A stretch of 56,217 bases of DNA from Bacteriovorax stolpii (lineage in GTDB: Bacteria; Bdellovibrionota; Bacteriovoracia; Bacteriovoracales; Bacteriovoracaceae). A program made the translations under genes and the position numbers. Under the pieces are notes generated by a model. That model saw only the letters and a program-made list of their open reading frames with translations. It was not told the origin of the DNA and ran no database searches. Of the stretch, positions 16,333 through 24,513 are shown piece after piece; the first letter of the stretch is position 1; every line of letters begins with the position of its first letter. The stretch is from the NCBI GenBank assembly GCA_945905815.1, contig CAMDQH010000012.1, positions 1 through 56,217 of the forward strand, in the 5' to 3' direction.

Positions 16333-17205
16333 ATGTTTTCTTACATAATTTACCCTTTATTCATTTTTAGTCTTGTTTATTGGATTGAATCTAAACCGAT
16401 AGTTATGACTAACCCATTGAATCTTAAGAGAAGTGCAGCCGAAGAATTGGAGGACTGGCTCAAGCGATTCAATTGGGGCAACCGGCAGGAGCTTCAGGCG
16501 CCAGGAAGGCTACCCATTTACAAATTTTACACAGAAGTCGTCGAAATTCTTCTCTCTCTGGCCCGAAAAATGGGAGGGAGCTATCAAGATTCATTGCTAT
16601 TTTTGCGTGAAGGGCTACAGGCCGACAGACAGTTTGAAAAAAAATTAAAAGAAATCGTTCTTGGAACATGGTTGCAGATGGGAATGATGGTTGTCCTTAC
16701 ATGGAGTTTTATTTTAGGAGCTCTTTTTTTGGTAGACGTCAAAATAAGCATCATGAAGTTAGTTTTAATTGCATTATGGCAGGGGATTGGTCTTTGCCTT
16801 CTACCTTTGGTTGTTTCCTATTTTCGTAAAAAATTCTTTGGCGATATTGGTAAACTTTGGAAGATGCTTTATGTTTTACGATCCTTGATCAAAGTTCCTC
16901 TTTCAAGAACTGAAATTCTAACGATTGCCGGAGTCGCTGAGATTAAAACCATTCAACAGAAATCATTGATTCACATTGTAGATAAATTAAAAGAAACATG
17001 TCAGAAGGCCCTCCAGATGGGGGGGAGTTATGAAGAAGAAGTTTTAACTCTCATGAGTGAACTTAGGTTCCAAGAAAAATGGCATTTCGAACTTTTTGAA
17101 AAGCGACTCATGGTGATAAAACTCGGTTTAATGTCGATTTTCTTTTTACCATCGTATCTAGCGTTCATTTTTTTACTTTTAGGTGACCTTTTGACTCTAA
17201 TGTAG
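16333..17205 (+). CDS. membrane protein, probable T2SF/TadC-like pilus assembly protein
   Basis: 290 aa with TM segments at about 2-17, 112-132, 140-162 and 262-288, and a cytoplasmic helical region between the third and fourth. That order is the GspF/TadB-TadC domain plan: two TMs, a helical bundle, a C-terminal TM. The stretch EEEVLTLMSELRFQEKWHFE before the last TM resembles the family's conserved region. Context supports it, because a CpaF-like ATPase, a CpaC-like secretin and a Flp-like pilin follow within 6 kb. Family assignment is tentative; ettA starts 71 bp downstream. Confidence 0.52.
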   Translation: MFSYIIYPLFIFSLVYWIESKPIVMTNPLNLKRSAAEELEDWLKRFNWGNRQELQAPGRLPIYKFYTEVVEILLSLARKMGGSYQDSLLFLREGLQADRQFEKKLKEIVLGTWLQMGMMVVLTWSFILGALFLVDVKISIMKLVLIALWQGIGLCLLPLVVSYFRKKFFGDIGKLWKMLYVLRSLIKVPLSRTEILTIAGVAEIKTIQQKSLIHIVDKLKETCQKALQMGGSYEEEVLTLMSELRFQEKWHFELFEKRLMVIKLGLMSIFFLPSYLAFIFLLLGDLLTLM

Positions 17206-19169: not shown

Positions 19170-20273
19170 TTAGAAAATTGAACTTTTTTGTCTCTCATTA
19201 AAAATATTCTCATAAAAAGGTATCCCTTTATCCGAACCCATAATCTTGATGACCTCTTTAACTTTTTTATTCTCCATAAAAACGACATATTCTAAATTTC
19301 GACAAATGAGTTCCATTACTTTCTCAAAGGCGAGGTTGGCCTCACCTGCATATAGTGTAAAAAGAAGTGCTACGCGGTTTAATGCATCAACTGCGCTTGA
19401 TGCGTGAAGAGTTCCCATCAGGCCTTTGTGTCCAGTGTTCATGGCCATAAGAAAAGGGACAACTTCATGAGAGCGCATTTCTCCCAGAATAATTCGGTCC
19501 GGGCTTAATCTAAGTGAGTAAGCAAGATAAGATCTTAGGGAGGTTTGGACCGAATCGCCTGAGAGAAAGCGCGTCTGATAAGGATGCTCTGAAATGATTT
19601 CATAAGTATCTTCCAGAACTACTAAATGTTCATCTCTATCCACAAAATCCAGGAGACTGGTTAATAGAGAGGTTTTTCCCGAACCTGTTGAGCCAGCAAT
19701 AAGTACGTTCTTTTTGTTTTTAACCATTTCAACTAAGGCTTCAGTTTCTCCAAAGGATACAATGTCGTGAGACTTTTTAGATAGGCAGCGAAGCACGAGT
19801 TTTGAAATACCACTGGGAGAAGTGGATCCGTGAATCATACTAAACCGATAATTCTTTCCAAACAATTCACCAAAAAAGCTGCAGAAAGGGTTTTGAACAT
19901 TCCAGTTTTGTTTATATTTAATAGATATAATCTCAAGCCATAATTGCCAGTCTTCACTATGAAGCTCCACAAGTAGATCAATTTTTTTTCCATTCAGGGT
20001 CAGACGTTGAGATTTATCAAACGAATGGAAAAAAAACTCTGTTGCATCCAAATTGAGCATGTCTTCTAAAAATGGCCATTGAGTCAGGCGCACGAAATTT
20101 TCTTTTATCGATTCCAAGTCTTCTACATTGCTCAAAACTGGCAGTTCCTGGAAGAATTGATCCCAAAAAGGAATCATCCCCTTGTTTAAGGATGAAACCA
20201 AAAGTCGTCTTGCTTGCGTGAGTGCTTCTTCACGGTGAAGTGGGATTTCGGCATCTTTAAATAAACTTAACAT
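19170..20273 (-). CDS. CpaF/TadA-like secretion ATPase
   Basis: 367-aa member of the VirB11/GspE superfamily, shorter at the N-terminus than typical CpaF (about 450 aa). Walker A is AGSTGSGKTS (193-202). An acidic ASP-box region (VLEDTYEI), the segment RLSPDRIILGEMRSHEV with Walker B-like character, and the His box NTGHKGLMGTLHAS are present. It should hexamerise and energise assembly of Tad pili from the inner-membrane face. Its start overlaps the secretin stop by 1 bp (TAATG), so the two are coupled. The short N-terminus and lack of a nearby TadB leave open a divergent system. Confidence 0.85.
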   Translation of the reverse strand: MLSLFKDAEIPLHREEALTQARRLLVSSLNKGMIPFWDQFFQELPVLSNVEDLESIKENFVRLTQWPFLEDMLNLDATEFFFHSFDKSQRLTLNGKKIDLLVELHSEDWQLWLEIISIKYKQNWNVQNPFCSFFGELFGKNYRFSMIHGSTSPSGISKLVLRCLSKKSHDIVSFGETEALVEMVKNKKNVLIAGSTGSGKTSLLTSLLDFVDRDEHLVVLEDTYEIISEHPYQTRFLSGDSVQTSLRSYLAYSLRLSPDRIILGEMRSHEVVPFLMAMNTGHKGLMGTLHASSAVDALNRVALLFTLYAGEANLAFEKVMELICRNLEYVVFMENKKVKEVIKIMGSDKGIPFYENIFNERQKSSIF

Positions 20274-21553
20274 TATTCCACCGCCTCTAAAACGACGTAG
20301 CCGTAAATTTGTTTGTATGTTTTTGTGTCTGACTTTGATTCAAATAAATGTTTCAAAATAGGGATTTCCGATAGTAGAGGTATACCCTTGCGGGCCTTTC
20401 CTGTGGTTTGAAAACCAATTTGAAAGATTTTCATGGGAACACCGATTTCTAAAAGTGCCGAGGAGATTTCTTTGCTACCACTAATCGCTTGGTCAACCGG
20501 GCGAGAGAATTCTGTTTCGTATTCCAAAAGAAGTTTTCCGTATGATTCAGTGATTTTCGTTTTGATCTTGAGACCTGCAAATCTCCAGTCAATCGGAGCG
20601 ATAACAGCAGATCCCTGAACACCGATATTTTGATAAGGAATCTGTGATCCTATTTCTATTACCTGTGGCGTATTCAGATTAACCACGAGTTCAGGTTCAG
20701 CAAGTGAAGAAAGATCCATCTGGGATTTTTGAAGAAAGACTGTATTCTTATCAATAAGGTTTCTTATGCCGCTTACAAAAAGATCTGAAACGCTGGCCTG
20801 TAGCGTATCTAAACCAAGATGGATTTCTTTTCCATCCATTCTTTCTAGTTGAACCAGTTTCAATTTTAGACGGTAATTCTTATGACGAAGTCGTGAGTCT
20901 TGTTTAATAAAAGAAACACGGTAAAAGCCGGCGATTTGTTTTAAGAAATCAGCATTCGTTTCTCCTTCATAGAAACAAAGAATATCTAACCAGTCTGCCT
21001 GACATGTGACTGATGAGAATCCATTTCCATAAAGTTTTTTATAAATTTGGCCTACAATATGGTTTCTTAGCTTTGGATCGAGTGTAATTTTGAAAAAGAC
21101 CTGATCTTGAAATTGTCCTTTAATCTTTTGTAGATAGAGATAATCTGAAAAATCACTTAGAACACCAGATGCGGTCATAATAGGACCTTTTATGTCGATG
21201 GTGAGATTTAAGTTTTTAAGGGCGTCTGCAAGCTGGAACGTTTTGAGAAATTTTTGCTTGGAGAGAACGTAGATACTGATGACTTCTTTGCCAGTTTTTT
21301 TCCAGACAACTAGATCCGTAAATCCCACCTTCTTGCCTTTAAGAAGGAGTTTTCCGGTTTTAGGAATAAATTTATATGAGATCACCCCTGGATTCCCAAC
21401 GGAAAAGTTCTTCAGGCCTTGAAAACTGAGTTCTTTTTGTTCCCCCTTGGCCAAAATGACATCCGATTGAGGAACTTGCGCAAATGACGCTACAGGCAAT
21501 AGGAAGAAGACTTTGACAATAAGGAGGCATCTGGTTAGATTGAGGAGCTTCAA
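20273..21553 (-). CDS. CpaC/RcpA-like pilus secretin (TTG start)
   Basis: About 426 aa from TTG 21553. The open frame continues to 21895, but that extension is the antisense of a Lys/Ala-rich gene and would put the signal peptide at residue 115. From TTG the protein has a proper signal: MKLLNLTRCLLIVKVFFLLP, then VASFAQ. An N-terminal pilus/BON-type domain follows (GEQKELSFQGLKNFSVGNPG). The C-terminal secretin domain ends with GIPLLSEIPILKHLF, the hallmark sequence before the lip. It should form the outer-membrane pore for a Tad-like pilus. No good Shine-Dalgarno precedes the TTG, so the start is moderately certain. Confidence 0.78.
   Translation of the reverse strand: MKLLNLTRCLLIVKVFFLLPVASFAQVPQSDVILAKGEQKELSFQGLKNFSVGNPGVISYKFIPKTGKLLLKGKKVGFTDLVVWKKTGKEVISIYVLSKQKFLKTFQLADALKNLNLTIDIKGPIMTASGVLSDFSDYLYLQKIKGQFQDQVFFKITLDPKLRNHIVGQIYKKLYGNGFSSVTCQADWLDILCFYEGETNADFLKQIAGFYRVSFIKQDSRLRHKNYRLKLKLVQLERMDGKEIHLGLDTLQASVSDLFVSGIRNLIDKNTVFLQKSQMDLSSLAEPELVVNLNTPQVIEIGSQIPYQNIGVQGSAVIAPIDWRFAGLKIKTKITESYGKLLLEYETEFSRPVDQAISGSKEISSALLEIGVPMKIFQIGFQTTGKARKGIPLLSEIPILKHLFESKSDTKTYKQIYGYVVLEAVE
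21513..21541 (+). promoter_or_regulatory. strong promoter for the H1-like gene, inside the secretin 5' end
   Basis: TTGACA (21513-21518, perfect), a 17-bp spacer, TAGATT (21536-21541, 4/6). It gives an about 43-nt leader to ATG 21591 with the Shine-Dalgarno GAGGAG. The promoter lies on the opposite strand of the secretin signal-peptide codons, so the H1 transcript begins near the secretin start. Confidence 0.6.
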
Positions 21554-21590
21554 ATTTGAAATATTTAGATTATTCCTCGAGGAGATATTT

Positions 21591-21890
21591 ATGGCTTCAA
21601 GAACCGCAGTAACAGAAAACCGTCGTAAGGCACACCACAGAGCTATGGGAGCAAAAAGAAAAGCTGCCAACCGCAATAAAGGTACAACTCCTAAGTTTGC
21701 TGTCCATGAAAATGGCGCACCTAAAGTAGTTAAAGCTGTTGCACATGTTGCAGTTTTAAAAGCACCTAGTGCTAAAAAAGCTAAAGTGTTTAAAGTAAAA
21801 GCACCTAAAGCTGAAAAAGCTCCAAAGGCCGCAGTTGAGAAAAAAGCGAAAGCTCCTAAAACTGAAAAAGCTGCAAAACCTACTAAGTAA
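21591..21890 (+). CDS. Lys/Ala-rich histone H1-like protein
   Basis: 99 aa from ATG 21591, which has a strong Shine-Dalgarno (GAGGAGATATTT before ATG). The N-terminal 45 residues are basic (RRKAHHRAMGAKRKAANRNK). The C-terminal half consists of KAPK/KAEK/KAAK-type repeats (VKAPKAEKAPKAAVEKKAKA) like eukaryotic H1 tails and bacterial H1-like proteins. It probably binds DNA or RNA by charge; this is inference from composition. It is the only plus-strand gene between minus-strand pilus genes, squeezed into a gap of about 350 bp. Confidence 0.7.
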   Translation: MASRTAVTENRRKAHHRAMGAKRKAANRNKGTTPKFAVHENGAPKVVKAVAHVAVLKAPSAKKAKVFKVKAPKAEKAPKAAVEKKAKAPKTEKAAKPTK

Positions 21891-21903
21891 TTCATAAGTG
21901 CTC

Positions 21904-22206
21904 CTATGGGGCCTGAAATATTTTAAGTGATTCAGAAACAAATGAACGATCAACGGAGACTATTAAAAGGTCTCCGTTTTTTTTTAAGCAGAGATCTAAC
22001 TTTCCTCTTTCATCTAATTCATCACAATTTGCGACTTCTCCTAACGAAATAAGATCCTCCGGAATTTGATAAGTTCCAATAAAGATGTCTTTCACAATTT
22101 GGGCACGGGATGGTTCGTCTTCATAAAAGACCTTGATGGGAGTTGGAGCTGCCTTGGCAGTGCTGGCAATTGTTACCAACGCAATAAAGCTAATAACGAA
22201 TTTCAT
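21904..22206 (-). CDS. small exported protein of the pilus operon, unknown
   Basis: 100 aa with a signal peptide (SFIALVTIASTAKA, cleavage after residue 19). The mature part has two Cys residues about 14 apart (VANCDELDERGKLDLC), which may form a disulfide, and strand-like segments (NGDLLIVSVDRSF). No family is recognised. It starts inside the upstream gene's end (17-bp overlap), so it is the last member of the minus-strand pilin operon beginning at 23750. Confidence 0.58.
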   Translation of the reverse strand: MKFVISFIALVTIASTAKAAPTPIKVFYEDEPSRAQIVKDIFIGTYQIPEDLISLGEVANCDELDERGKLDLCLKKNGDLLIVSVDRSFVSESLKIFQAP

Positions 22207-22618
22207 GGTCTAATCCTCTAGAGAGTGGAGCAAAGGTGAGCGTTTTTAGGAACGGCACGATTTCCCAGCTGTCGTATTTTAAGAGGGACTCTACTTCAGT
22301 TTCTTTAACCAAAACCGTAAATCGTCCCTCAGGTTCTAATGGAGATGTTTCTAACATGGCCTCCACCCTTTTCCGGGCACTACGCTGAAGAAGAAGAACC
22401 TTTTTTCCAGATTGAAATGGAGTGAGTAATTCTGCACGTACCTGTATTTCTACCCATCCTTCTGGAATAGACGAGACTGCGTCTACTTTTGTTTCACTTC
22501 CGGAAAATAGAGCGAAAAAAAAGATATTTGAAAGGACAATGGCGATAGCAAGTTTCATCCACCAGACTTTAGTCTTTGTATCTCTTTTCAAGATATTGCC
22601 AGCGATTTTGGAAATCAT
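22190..22618 (-). CDS. membrane-anchored pilus-operon protein, possibly CpaB-like
   Basis: 142 aa with one TM at about 21-38 and an exported domain of about 100 residues. The start at 22618 has AAAGGA 8 nt upstream; a second ATG at 22558 (MKLAIAIVL) would avoid a 50-bp overlap with the preceding gene but lacks a good site. The exported part (EGWVEIQVRAELLTPFQSGK, then KVLLLQRSARK) has strand character that weakly recalls the SAF domain of CpaB/RcpC. That link is speculative and rests mainly on position between pilins and secretin. Confidence 0.55.
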   Translation of the reverse strand: MISKIAGNILKRDTKTKVWWMKLAIAIVLSNIFFFALFSGSETKVDAVSSIPEGWVEIQVRAELLTPFQSGKKVLLLQRSARKRVEAMLETSPLEPEGRFTVLVKETEVESLLKYDSWEIVPFLKTLTFAPLSRGLDHEIRY

Positions 22619-22835
22619 TTAAGTGGTCCTTTGTTCTATGCTCATAAAGTTTGTTAAGTAAAAAAAGCCCAAGAAATAATAAGCTAGAGGCCATTAGCGT
22701 GAGGATAAAAGGGAGGACAATATCGCCCCCTTCTCCTCGGCCTGGTAGGTAGGATTTGGTACGATGGTTTCGATACTGGAGGCGTCGATTTTCAGTGTTA
22801 GCAGATAGGGTCTCTTTAAAAAATAATAGGTCCAT
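22569..22835 (-). CDS. TadE-like prepilin candidate, overlapping the upstream gene by 142 bp
   Basis: 88 aa. ATG 22835 has an excellent Shine-Dalgarno (AGGAG, 6 nt before). The leader is about 37 residues, then GEGGDIVLPFILTLMASSLL starts a long hydrophobic segment, the layout of TadE/TadF minor pilins. After the TM the protein is short, polar and basic. No other ATG, GTG or TTG occurs before the hydrophobic core, so the start lies inside the 200-aa gene in another frame. Either both proteins are made from the overlap or the upstream gene carries a frameshift. Confidence 0.55.
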   Translation of the reverse strand: MDLLFFKETLSANTENRRLQYRNHRTKSYLPGRGEGGDIVLPFILTLMASSLLFLGLFLLNKLYEHRTKDHLNDFQNRWQYLEKRYKD

Positions 22836-23296
22836 TTTTTACTCCTAATAATGGCCGAACCATCCATTCTTCTTTTAAATCCAAAGTCTGAACCTAGTTG
22901 GTAGGGATTAAGAAACATTTGGGGATCTATCGGGCAGCCACGTACTTTCAGGCCATTTAATTTCGCAAAGTAGAGTCCCAGTTCACCGGCCTGCAGACCC
23001 TTAGCAACTTTTTTTAACTTTTCAGCATTTCCAACAACCGGCCAAAGTGGGGGGTAAAAGATCGCTATCATTTGGGCACGAGAAACATTTTGTAAAAGCC
23101 AGTTCAAGCGACCCATGGACTTCAGATAAAGATGCAATTCGCCTTTGGTTTCTTTTACACAGAGAAAAAGTGTGGTGCGCTTTTTCATTGAACTAAAGTG
23201 ATGTTGAAGCTCCAGACTACATAGAGTTAACAGACCACTAAGAGCGACTAGAATCAGGACACAAAAGAGAATGGCCTCACCTTTTTGATTCCTCAT
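22694..23296 (-). CDS. prepilin-like membrane protein
   Basis: 200 aa. The N-terminus MRNQKGEAILFCVLILVALS has the type IV-like prepilin form: a short basic leader, Gly, then a hydrophobic helix with Glu near its start. The cleavage site would be QKG-E. The remainder (about 45-200) is a soluble exported domain with several Cys and aromatic residues. It overlaps the preceding 92-aa gene by 4 bp. It is likely a TadF/TadG-like minor pilin by position; sequence does not identify it further. Confidence 0.6.
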   Translation of the reverse strand: MRNQKGEAILFCVLILVALSGLLTLCSLELQHHFSSMKKRTTLFLCVKETKGELHLYLKSMGRLNWLLQNVSRAQMIAIFYPPLWPVVGNAEKLKKVAKGLQAGELGLYFAKLNGLKVRGCPIDPQMFLNPYQLGSDFGFKRRMDGSAIIRSKKWTYYFLKRPYLLTLKIDASSIETIVPNPTYQAEEKGAILSSLLSSR

Positions 23297-23571
23297 ATTT
23301 TGCCACTAAGAGGTAAGTTGAAAGCATGCTTGCCTAAGTTAGGTAAGCGTCTCCAGCTAACCCTTTTGTGCTTAAGGATTACGTGCAATTTGCAACTAGC
23401 ATCTACCGCTTGGGCGTAGTCTTTTGGATGATAAAGAAGGGTACTGGTTTGTAATTCAGTACCCTTTAGCCAAGCATTTTGCCGGCAAACAGTTGCCTGG
23501 TGAAAGGCCACTGCCTCGATCATGACTGCTACCATTAAAGTGAGAGCAAGGGTCCAGGCAATGAAGTTCAT
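23293..23571 (-). CDS. small membrane/pilin-operon protein
   Basis: 92 aa with an N-terminal hydrophobic helix (AWTLALTLMVAVMIEAVAFH, residues 5-24) and a basic exported part with two Cys residues. It has a Glu within the hydrophobic helix, as in minor pilins, but no clear prepilin peptidase site. It overlaps its neighbours by 4 bp on both sides. Probably part of the pilus; no family is recognised. Confidence 0.55.
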   Translation of the reverse strand: MNFIAWTLALTLMVAVMIEAVAFHQATVCRQNAWLKGTELQTSTLLYHPKDYAQAVDASCKLHVILKHKRVSWRRLPNLGKHAFNLPLSGKI

Positions 23572-23750
23572 TTTTTGGTTGAGGTAATCGTGATTTCTTT
23601 AGTTATTTTCTGCTTCATCCCTTCTATTCGATTTTGGATGACGTCCCCAAACTGCTTAACAACGGTCAAACAGCAAATCCCAATAAGACTTGAAATGATG
23701 ACGTACTCCATGATTCCCTGGCCTTTCTGGTTCCTAAATAGCTTTTTCAT
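23568..23750 (-). CDS. Flp-type major pilin
   Basis: 60 aa, the usual size for Flp pilins. The leader MKKLFRNQKG ends at the prepilin peptidase site (G before QGIMEY). After cleavage the mature protein starts QGIMEY with Glu5 and Tyr6, the Flp hallmark, followed by a hydrophobic helix (VIISSLIGICCLTVVKQF) and a short basic tail. The Shine-Dalgarno is near-perfect (AAGGAGG, 5 nt before ATG), fitting high expression. First gene of the minus-strand pilus operon. Confidence 0.8.
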   Translation of the reverse strand: MKKLFRNQKGQGIMEYVIISSLIGICCLTVVKQFGDVIQNRIEGMKQKITKEITITSTKK

Positions 23751-23883: not shown

Positions 23884-24513
23884 ATGGAAGAAAATAACAA
23901 AGTTATCGTATTTGAAAAAAAAGAGATCATTCTCATCCTCTTGTTTGTGGTGGTTCTTATCATCACAAGCTTTACTCTCGGTATACAGCTCGGAAAGAAG
24001 TTGGCCTTGGAGGAATCTGGAATTAAACCAGAGGATCAAAAAACGGTTGAACTGAAATCCAGTATCGAAGAAGACGTTGAAAAAACAATTCAAGAAGATT
24101 CTAAACTTACAGACGAAGAGAAGCTAAAAAAACTAATGGATGAATCGAAGAATCGTTTATCAGATGAGCTTGAAAAGTTTTCAGCTAAAGATAAAGATAA
24201 AGATAAAGATAAAGATAAAGATAAAGTGGAGCCAAATAAAAGTGTTGAGCCTCAGACCTCAAGTGCCATGAATGGAAAATATACAATTCAATTAGGATCT
24301 TACCCAACTGTTGAGGAAGCGAAGCAATTTGCTGAAGGTTTCACCGTGAGAGGGTATAGTCCGATCATTAATGAGACATCACTTGATAACAAAGGGACAT
24401 GGTACCGAGTAAGTCTTGGATTGTTTAGTAATGTTGAAGAGGCCAAGGCATATGTTAAAAATGAGCAAAGTTTATTCTCAGGTCAAGATTACGTAATTAC
24501 CGAAATCAAATAA
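23884..24513 (+). CDS. SPOR-domain membrane protein
   Basis: 209 aa: an N-terminal TM (about 15-36), a charged coiled-coil-like linker (about 45-100), a (DK)6 run, and a C-terminal SPOR domain (about 135-207: YTIQLGSYPTVEEAKQFAEG, GTWYRVSLGLF). SPOR domains bind denuded glycan strands at division sites, so this is likely a bitopic inner-membrane septal protein. No Shine-Dalgarno is obvious. It is divergent from the pilin operon and convergent with the next gene, stops 2 bp apart. Confidence 0.85.
   Translation: MEENNKVIVFEKKEIILILLFVVVLIITSFTLGIQLGKKLALEESGIKPEDQKTVELKSSIEEDVEKTIQEDSKLTDEEKLKKLMDESKNRLSDELEKFSAKDKDKDKDKDKDKVEPNKSVEPQTSSAMNGKYTIQLGSYPTVEEAKQFAEGFTVRGYSPIINETSLDNKGTWYRVSLGLFSNVEEAKAYVKNEQSLFSGQDYVITEIK
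24187..24226 (+). repeat. tandem AAAGAT hexamer array in the SPOR gene
   Basis: Six full copies of AAAGAT plus a partial AAAG, coding for alternating Asp-Lys. Because the unit is 6 bp, slippage would change linker length without changing frame. Confidence 0.9.

What the first reader, a model, noticed from the sequence alone, without database searches (positions are those of the whole stretch)
19170..23750. Compact Tad-like pilus locus lacking TadB, TadV and TadG
A Flp-type pilin, several tiny pilin-like proteins, a secretin and a shortened CpaF sit together, yet the canonical platform proteins and prepilin peptidase are absent (only a weak T2SF-like gene at 16333). It may be a reduced or divergent Tad variant.
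Basis: partly seen in the sequence, partly recalled or inferred. Interest (0 to 1): 0.5.

Follow-up and report, generated by a model that had tools for sequence, protein, structure and literature searches.

The report
Compact second Tad pilus, fused platform
These genes are not a broken pilus locus but what looks like a complete, slimmed-down second pilus machine, kept throughout a family of Bdellovibrio-like bacteria, in which two membrane proteins that are normally separate appear to be merged into one small protein.

Summary
A Flp pilin, small pilin-like genes, a secretin and a 367-aa CpaF lie at 19170-23750; no gene there matches the Pfam platform or prepilin-peptidase families. It is not a decayed duplicate. 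The genome has a full Tad locus elsewhere (contig C22, TadC on C7), yet this CpaF has an orthologue in 113 of 129 family genomes, gene order is kept, and codon positions show purifying selection. The "missing" parts are mostly explained. The gene at 16333 is a single-copy platform protein (122 of 129 genomes) whose two halves resemble TadB-type and TadC-type proteins; in Bdellovibrio the same protein is split over two overlapping genes. The 142-aa protein matches RcpC (CpaB) best in structure. Prepilin peptidases exist in trans. The locus corresponds to Bdellovibrio bd3297 (flp3) to bd3307 (cpaF), so Flp3, published as "not TAD-associated", belongs to a second Tad-like system. Best reading: a compact Tad variant with a fused, shortened TadB-TadC platform that assembles its own Flp filament. 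Its role is unknown: HD100 flp3 was silent and dispensable in the published tests. New variant of a known kind.

The parts
23568..23750 (-). Flp-type major pilin (60 aa, NQKG-QGIMEY...)
   Evidence: GxxxxEY motif in 41 of 41 loci; profile match to the Bdellovibrio flp3-locus pilin, hhalign 97.6%
23293..23571 (-). 92-aa protein, N-terminal hydrophobic helix, no clear prepilin motif; possible minor pilin
   Evidence: 31 of 41 loci; third-codon-position excess
22694..23296 (-). 200-aa prepilin-like protein (QKG-EAILF... hydrophobic), candidate large minor pilin or tip protein
   Evidence: 38 of 41 loci; best row match is Bdellovibrio 247-aa counterpart, 69.9%
22569..22835 (-). 88-aa tiny pilin-like protein overlapping the previous gene (true start may be internal)
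   Evidence: sequence shows a hydrophobic segment after GRGEGG; counterpart in Bdellovibrio has GQILIE; profile counts unreliable
22190..22618 (-). 142-aa minimal RcpC/CpaB-like protein: one TM helix plus small beta domain
   Evidence: 40 of 41 loci; AlphaFold model (pLDDT 84), top PDB match RcpC 9gzr Z 7.1, rmsd 3.8, 89 aligned, next row 4.8
21904..22206 (-). 100-aa exported protein (signal peptide), function unknown
   Evidence: 40 of 41 loci; weak row-best match to Bdellovibrio 297-aa counterpart, 20%
20273..21553 (-). secretin (426 aa, start at TTG inferred)
   Evidence: PF00263 and PF13629; 40 of 41 loci; hhalign 99.8% with the Bdellovibrio bd3306-type secretin
19170..20273 (-). CpaF/TadA-type ATPase (367 aa)
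   Evidence: PF00437 3.7e-30; 113 of 129 family genomes; catalytic residues invariant in 41
16333..17205 (+). inner-membrane platform protein (290 aa), apparent fused and shortened TadB-TadC
   Evidence: 122 of 129 genomes, one match each at E<=1e-5; hhalign to the split Bdellovibrio pair 90.6-94.6%; T2SSF weak hits in 6 of 30 members
21591..21890 (+). small Lys/Arg/Ala-rich ORF nested antisense between the 100-aa gene and the secretin; not known to belong to the pilus
   Evidence: 41 of 41 loci; no Pfam or NCBIfam match
23884..24513 (+). SPOR-domain membrane protein, divergent neighbour of the pilin gene; membership unknown
   Evidence: SPOR 1.9e-11; present in 41 of 41 loci

Best explanation
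A complete, compact second Tad-like (type IVc) pilus system, separate from the genome's canonical Tad. Flp prepilin (23568) and two or three small prepilin-like proteins are inserted in the inner membrane and cleaved by a prepilin peptidase encoded elsewhere (inferred). The CpaF ATPase (19170) drives a single platform protein (16333) that unites a TadB-type half and a TadC-type half. The filament leaves through the secretin, aligned by a minimal RcpC/CpaB-like protein (22190). Shown here: gene content, conservation, purifying selection, homology of secretin, ATPase and pilin, and the structural match to RcpC. Inferred: that they work as one machine, the shared peptidase, and the fused nature of the platform (profile evidence only). 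The Bdellovibrio counterpart is bd3297 (flp3) to bd3307, with a two-gene platform elsewhere. Physiological role unknown; a contact or adhesion filament used under conditions not yet tested is most likely.
For: CpaF orthologue in 113 of 129 family genomes at E<=1e-73, best outside the family 3.8e-62 among 239 genomes. Gene order kept in 40 fetched neighbourhoods. Platform gene downstream of cpaF in 30 of 41 loci, and in the other 11 genomes elsewhere in the genome. Canonical TadB and TadC in 35 of 35 good genomes sampled, so this is an additional system. Five genomes lack both CpaF and platform (G065, G071, G105, G121, G122), while G065 and G105 keep canonical TadB (the G105 hit is partial). 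Platform: first half vs TadB 73%, two halves vs each other 48%, unrelated ABC permeases <=0.4%; vs joined Bdellovibrio pair 94.6% over 212 columns, reversed order 19% over one half. RcpC structural match. Row-best matches to Bdellovibrio genes are the syntenic counterparts for pilin, 200-aa, 142-aa, 100-aa and secretin.
Against: In HD100 flp3 was silent in all conditions tested and its deletion did not affect predation (PMC5430801, passages). The platform's direct match to TadC is weak (4% for the second half) and Pfam T2SSF hits are sub-threshold. Structure search of the platform model was uninformative. No prepilin peptidase or TadZ in the locus. Two of 73 good family genomes lack the CpaF (G065, G077) and two lack the platform (G065, G081). 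The CpaF branch uniting window type and Bdellovibrio type has aLRT 88, with long branches.
Confidence: 0.7

Rival explanations
1. Accessory module: the locus supplies an alternative pilin, tip and outer-membrane exit, but extension relies on the canonical TadB/TadC (and possibly TadA) encoded on C22 and C7. The 16333 protein is then a modulator or unrelated membrane protein.
For: Platform gene lies on the other strand behind an ABC-F gene and leaves the neighbourhood in 11 of 41 loci. No peptidase in the locus. Non-TAD flp4 of Bdellovibrio may act with shared machinery (my inference, from no call).
Against: Own CpaF with all catalytic residues; 16333 present once in 122 of 129 genomes and collinear with a split T2SSF-like pair over most of its length; joint absence in 5 genomes, two of them with a canonical TadB match.
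Confidence: 0.18
2. Decayed duplicate of the canonical Tad locus on its way to loss.
For: A full Tad locus exists elsewhere in the genome; several canonical genes are absent here.
Against: Conserved across the family, ATPase residues invariant, third-position excess in the genes. CpaF is on a separate branch from the canonical and solo CpaF groups. Corresponding gene set in Bdellovibrio.
Confidence: 0.03
3. The operon builds a short pseudopilus for secretion (T2SS-like piston) or a DNA-uptake filament rather than an extended adhesive pilus.
For: Very small minor pilins and the minimal RcpC are compatible with a short fibre; the secretin matches the MshL and PilQ models, and GspD less, all below cut-off.
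Against: Flp-type pilin motif in 41 of 41 loci, CpaF of the TadA/VirB11 group, RcpC-like protein, none of which are T2SS traits by established knowledge.
Confidence: 0.07

Closest known systems
Bdellovibrio bacteriovorus flp3 locus, bd3297 to bd3307
   Same: Same ordered gene set: flp, TadE/200-aa-like, tiny pilin, CpaB-like, exported protein, secretin, CpaF. Tag arithmetic fits exactly: in strain kdesi the secretin is the 9th and CpaF the 10th gene after flp; the papers give flp3=bd3297, pilQ=bd3306, cpaF=bd3307.
   Different: In Bdellovibrio an amidohydrolase, a Gly-rich protein and a response-regulator kinase are inserted; the candidate platform is split into two genes elsewhere. Literature treats flp3 as not TAD-associated.
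Canonical Tad (type IVc) pilus, e.g. the C22/C7 system of the same genome
   Same: Flp pilin, CpaF/TadA, secretin, RcpC-like protein, small prepilin-like proteins.
   Different: One fused platform instead of TadB plus TadC, no TadZ or TadV in the locus, minimal RcpC, no large TadG.
Kil system of Myxococcus xanthus (PMC8460266, PMC12075869)
   Same: Tad-like machine in a predatory-bacteria lineage, components split over loci.
   Different: Kil has two platform proteins KilG and KilH, a KilA peptidase and 14 minor pilins; which Bdellovibrio locus those papers count as Kil-like was not checked in their supplements.
Actinobacterial Tad without TadC, and archaeal two-domain platforms (Denise et al. 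2019, PMC6668835)
   Same: Only one platform gene.
   Different: Actinobacterial TadB has a single domain; in archaeal platforms TadC aligns with the N-terminal and TadB with the C-terminal domain, the opposite order to 16333.

Membership tests
Tad (type IVc) pilus | Flp-type pilin with GxxxxEY | tested here: met
   41 of 41 loci
Tad (type IVc) pilus | CpaF/TadA-group secretion ATPase | tested here: met
   T2SSE 3.7e-30; TadA-family TIGR03819 7.7e-34, below cut-off and behind VirB11 and TrbB models; invariant catalytic residues
Tad (type IVc) pilus | secretin | tested here: met
   PF00263 above cut-off
Tad (type IVc) pilus | RcpC/CpaB | tested here: inconclusive
   structure match to RcpC, Z 7.1 vs 4.8 for the next row, but Foldseek E 0.31 and no sequence match to own CpaB (0.9%)
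Tad (type IVc) pilus | two separate platform genes tadB and tadC | tested here: not met
   one gene, 16333, with two T2SSF-like halves
Tad (type IVc) pilus | TadV prepilin peptidase and TadZ in the locus | tested here: not met
   peptidases only on C18 and C22; no TadZ-like Pfam match among the ORFs scanned; TadZ-like domain is fused to TadA on C22
Tad (type IVc) pilus | assembles an extracellular Flp filament | not testable with these tools
   needs microscopy
Bdellovibrio flp3-bd3307 system | orthologous pilin, secretin, CpaF and accessory genes in the same order | tested here: met
   hhalign matrix, secretin-CpaF pair in 18 of 20 out-of-family loci, tree branch aLRT 88
Kil system | separate KilG and KilH platforms | tested here: not met
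   single platform gene

The most novel reading that the evidence does not exclude
Across the Bdellovibrionota a second, separately evolving Tad lineage (flp3-bd3306-bd3307 type) runs beside the canonical Tad. In the window's family its platform pair tadB+tadC has been re-fused, in B-then-C order, into one 290-aa protein: a reversal of the gene fission that is held to define Tad, and possibly one of the smallest type IV filament platforms.
Probability: 0.5. Interest if true: 0.7.

Novelty: new variant of a known kind. Interest (0 to 1): 0.57.

Why it matters
Tad systems are described as systematically having two platform genes produced by gene fission (PMC6668835, passages). A natural single-chain TadB-TadC would show which half does what and give a small, tractable platform for structural work. 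It would also give the "orphan" Flp3 of Bdellovibrio its own assembly machine, which makes the puzzle of several non-interchangeable flp genes in predators directly testable.

Tried and rejected
Decayed duplicate: rejected on conservation and codon positions. Pfam and NCBIfam for the small genes, the 16333 protein and the basic ORF: nothing above cut-off. Foldseek and VIA-align on the platform model: only generic helical bundles, best Z 10.9 to a cytomegalovirus IE1 chain, no informative match; no platform chain was seen in the list, which shows nothing. hhalign of 16333 against own PilC and GspF single sequences: 1.6% and 0.1%, weak because single sequences. Direct match of 16333 to TadC: 1.1%. 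A promoter motif upstream of flp: a gap-rich alignment, no conclusion. Family name of the window's host: not verified; Bacteriovoracaceae is my inference from the phylum neighbours, Bdellovibrio being named.

Flawed results: the secretin query was out of frame (its count of 4 is void; one search gives 40 of 41). The regexes for Walker A (30 of 41) and Walker B (0 of 41) were wrongly written or too strict; the alignment shows G194, G199, K200, T201, R260, G264, E265 and R267 invariant in 41. The B60 and g88 profiles were contaminated by other pilins. L178 was dropped from the tree as a duplicate of L133, and L077 from the alignment as a fragment.

Literature: not found described as a system in searches of open PubMed Central only. 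Read as passages: PMC5430801, PMC3818213, PMC6561027, PMC12546842, PMC6668835, PMC10191384, PMC12827227, PMC5941755, PMC12075869 (plus its section 16); sections 7 (part 1) and 11 of PMC8460266. Supplements not read.
Full report
What is there. On the - strand between 23750 and 19170 lie a Flp-type pilin (60 aa), a 92-aa and a 200-aa protein with N-terminal hydrophobic segments, an 88-aa pilin-like ORF, a 142-aa and a 100-aa protein, a secretin and a CpaF-type ATPase. The secretin ORF as listed is too long: its first ~114 codons are the antisense of a small basic gene (21591-21890, +). The alignment of relatives points to a TTG start at 21553. A membrane protein of 290 aa is encoded on the + strand at 16333, behind an ABC-F gene.

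The genome has a full Tad elsewhere. Contig C22 carries two flp genes, a CpaA/TadV peptidase, TadE- and TadF-like genes, CpaB, CpaC, a TadZ-TadA fusion (716 aa) and TadB. TadC sits on C7 beside FHA and TPR genes, and a solo CpaF is on C24 (names by sequence reading and family matches). In 46 family genomes sampled, TadB was found in 43 and TadC in 44 (35 of 35 good genomes each), and the solo CpaF query matched in 46, in some of them perhaps only through the TadZ-TadA fusion.

The window locus is not a decayed copy. With an alignment of 41 orthologues, 113 of 129 family genomes have the window-type CpaF at E<=1e-73, while the best of 239 genomes outside the family reaches 3.8e-62. I fetched 40 neighbourhoods, chosen for genus spread and contig length from 125 genomes with a hit. 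Counting the window, flp is in 41 of 41, the secretin in 40, the 142-aa and 100-aa genes in 40, the 200-aa gene in 38 and the 92-aa gene in 31. Differences between close relatives concentrate at third codon positions in the genes tested, least clearly in the overlapping 88-aa ORF. Twenty-two CpaF columns are invariant, including the nucleotide-binding residues. One genus (L083-L085) keeps only flp, the RcpC-like, the 100-aa, secretin and CpaF genes at this place.

The platform. The 16333 protein lies downstream of cpaF in 30 of 41 loci. In the other 11 genomes it is found elsewhere, and over the family 122 of 129 genomes have one match each (71 of 73 good ones). Six of 30 members match Pfam T2SSF weakly, best 9.5e-4, more members than for any other family; a later scan of 10 members placed such matches in the first half of one and the second half of another. 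Profile comparisons: first half against TadB 73%, halves against each other 48%, whole protein against TadB 47% and TadC 1.1%, unrelated permeases at or below 0.4%, with TadB against TadC at 96.7% as a yardstick. In Bdellovibrio and a related genus, six of six genomes examined carry an extra pair of overlapping genes (145 and 259 aa in HD100) next to cysteine synthase; the 145-aa member matches T2SSF at 3.6e-5. The pair joined in gene order aligns with the 16333 family over 212 columns at 94.6% (90.6% in the other direction). Joined in reverse order only half aligns, at 19%, and joined permeases give 0.1%. The 259-aa member resembles TadB (46%, 222 columns) and the 145-aa member TadC (88%). 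Hence 16333 reads as a TadB-type half followed by a TadC-type half. Denise et al. (PMC6668835, passages) hold that TadB and TadC arose by fission and that TadC matches the N-terminal domain of archaeal platforms. The order here is the reverse, which fits a secondary fusion; this is inference from weak profiles. The AlphaFold model (pLDDT 84) is all helical, but fold searches were uninformative.

The RcpC-like protein. The 142-aa model has one long helix and a small beta domain. The first row of the VIA-align list is the Tad alignment protein RcpC (9gzr, Z 7.1, rmsd 3.8, 89 residues) and the next row is 4.8. Foldseek alone ranks it second with E 0.31, and sequence comparison with the genome's own CpaB finds nothing, so this is suggestive.

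Link to Bdellovibrio. Twenty of the best out-of-family CpaF hits were fetched; in 18 a related secretin directly precedes the ATPase, the exceptions being L140 and L145. All 24 genomes of one genus have the gene, and a named record, B. bacteriovorus kdesi, fixes the genus. There the order is flp, TadE-like, 247 aa, 60 aa, CpaB-like 159 aa, 297 aa, two inverted genes, a response-regulator kinase, secretin, CpaF. Published tags are flp3 = bd3297 (PMC5430801) and bd3306 pilQ, bd3307 cpaF (PMC3818213); the spacing is exact. Genome G132 has the length of HD100 (3,782,950; the HD100 length is recalled). Profile comparison pairs the window genes with their syntenic counterparts: pilin 97.6%, 200-aa 69.9%, 142-aa 90.2%, 100-aa 20.4% (weak), secretin 99.8%; the 92-aa gene does not pair with its positional counterpart. 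The CpaF tree separates window-type plus paired far sequences from canonical and solo CpaF with aLRT 88; one paired sequence (L135) falls on the other side, and long branches make this tentative.

Function. Avidan et al. found flp3 silent in attack and growth phase and its deletion without effect on predation, whereas flp1, flp2 and flp4 were needed (PMC5430801). Capeness et al. list bd3307 among genes lower in host-independent strains than in attack-phase HD100 (PMC3818213). So the system is probably not essential for laboratory predation in HD100, and its role in the window's family is open. Two genomes that lack both CpaF and platform, G065 and G105, keep a canonical TadB match, so the two systems can be lost independently.

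Verdict. A new variant of a known kind: a compact Tad-like system whose missing TadB and TadC appear to be one fused protein.

Noticed in passing
window 21591-21890 (+): Small basic ORF with core KxAANRNKGTTPKFAIH, about 41-99 aa, antisense between the 100-aa gene and the secretin in 41 of 41 loci, good Shine-Dalgarno in the window, no Pfam or NCBIfam match. Possibly an undescribed ribosome- or nucleic-acid-associated protein.
   Followed up: partly
window 23884-24513 (+): SPOR-domain membrane protein divergent from flp in 41 of 41 loci; may localise or regulate the pilus, or only share a promoter region.
   Followed up: no
L019:8686-10836 (-): TadZ-like (MinD/ParA) domain fused to TadA in one 716-aa protein; open frames of about 701-755 aa in most family genomes sampled.
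   Followed up: partly
L020:8286-9419 (+): Solo CpaF-type ATPase with no pilus genes beside it, next to enolase, strongly conserved (59-89% identity where a solo copy was listed); user system unknown.
   Followed up: no
L276:5308-6512 (-): Orphan overlapping gene pair in Bdellovibrio encoding split T2SSF-like platform halves beside cysteine synthase; seen in 6 of 6 genomes examined.
   Followed up: yes
L128:7798-11211, L129:7571-11797: In another family a secretin, CpaF, platform-like protein and FHA protein lie in a row, perhaps a third arrangement of the same system.
   Followed up: partly
G081:C27:20236-21256: CpaF split over two overlapping matches in one genome of the same genus, perhaps a frameshift; the platform was not found there either.
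   Followed up: no
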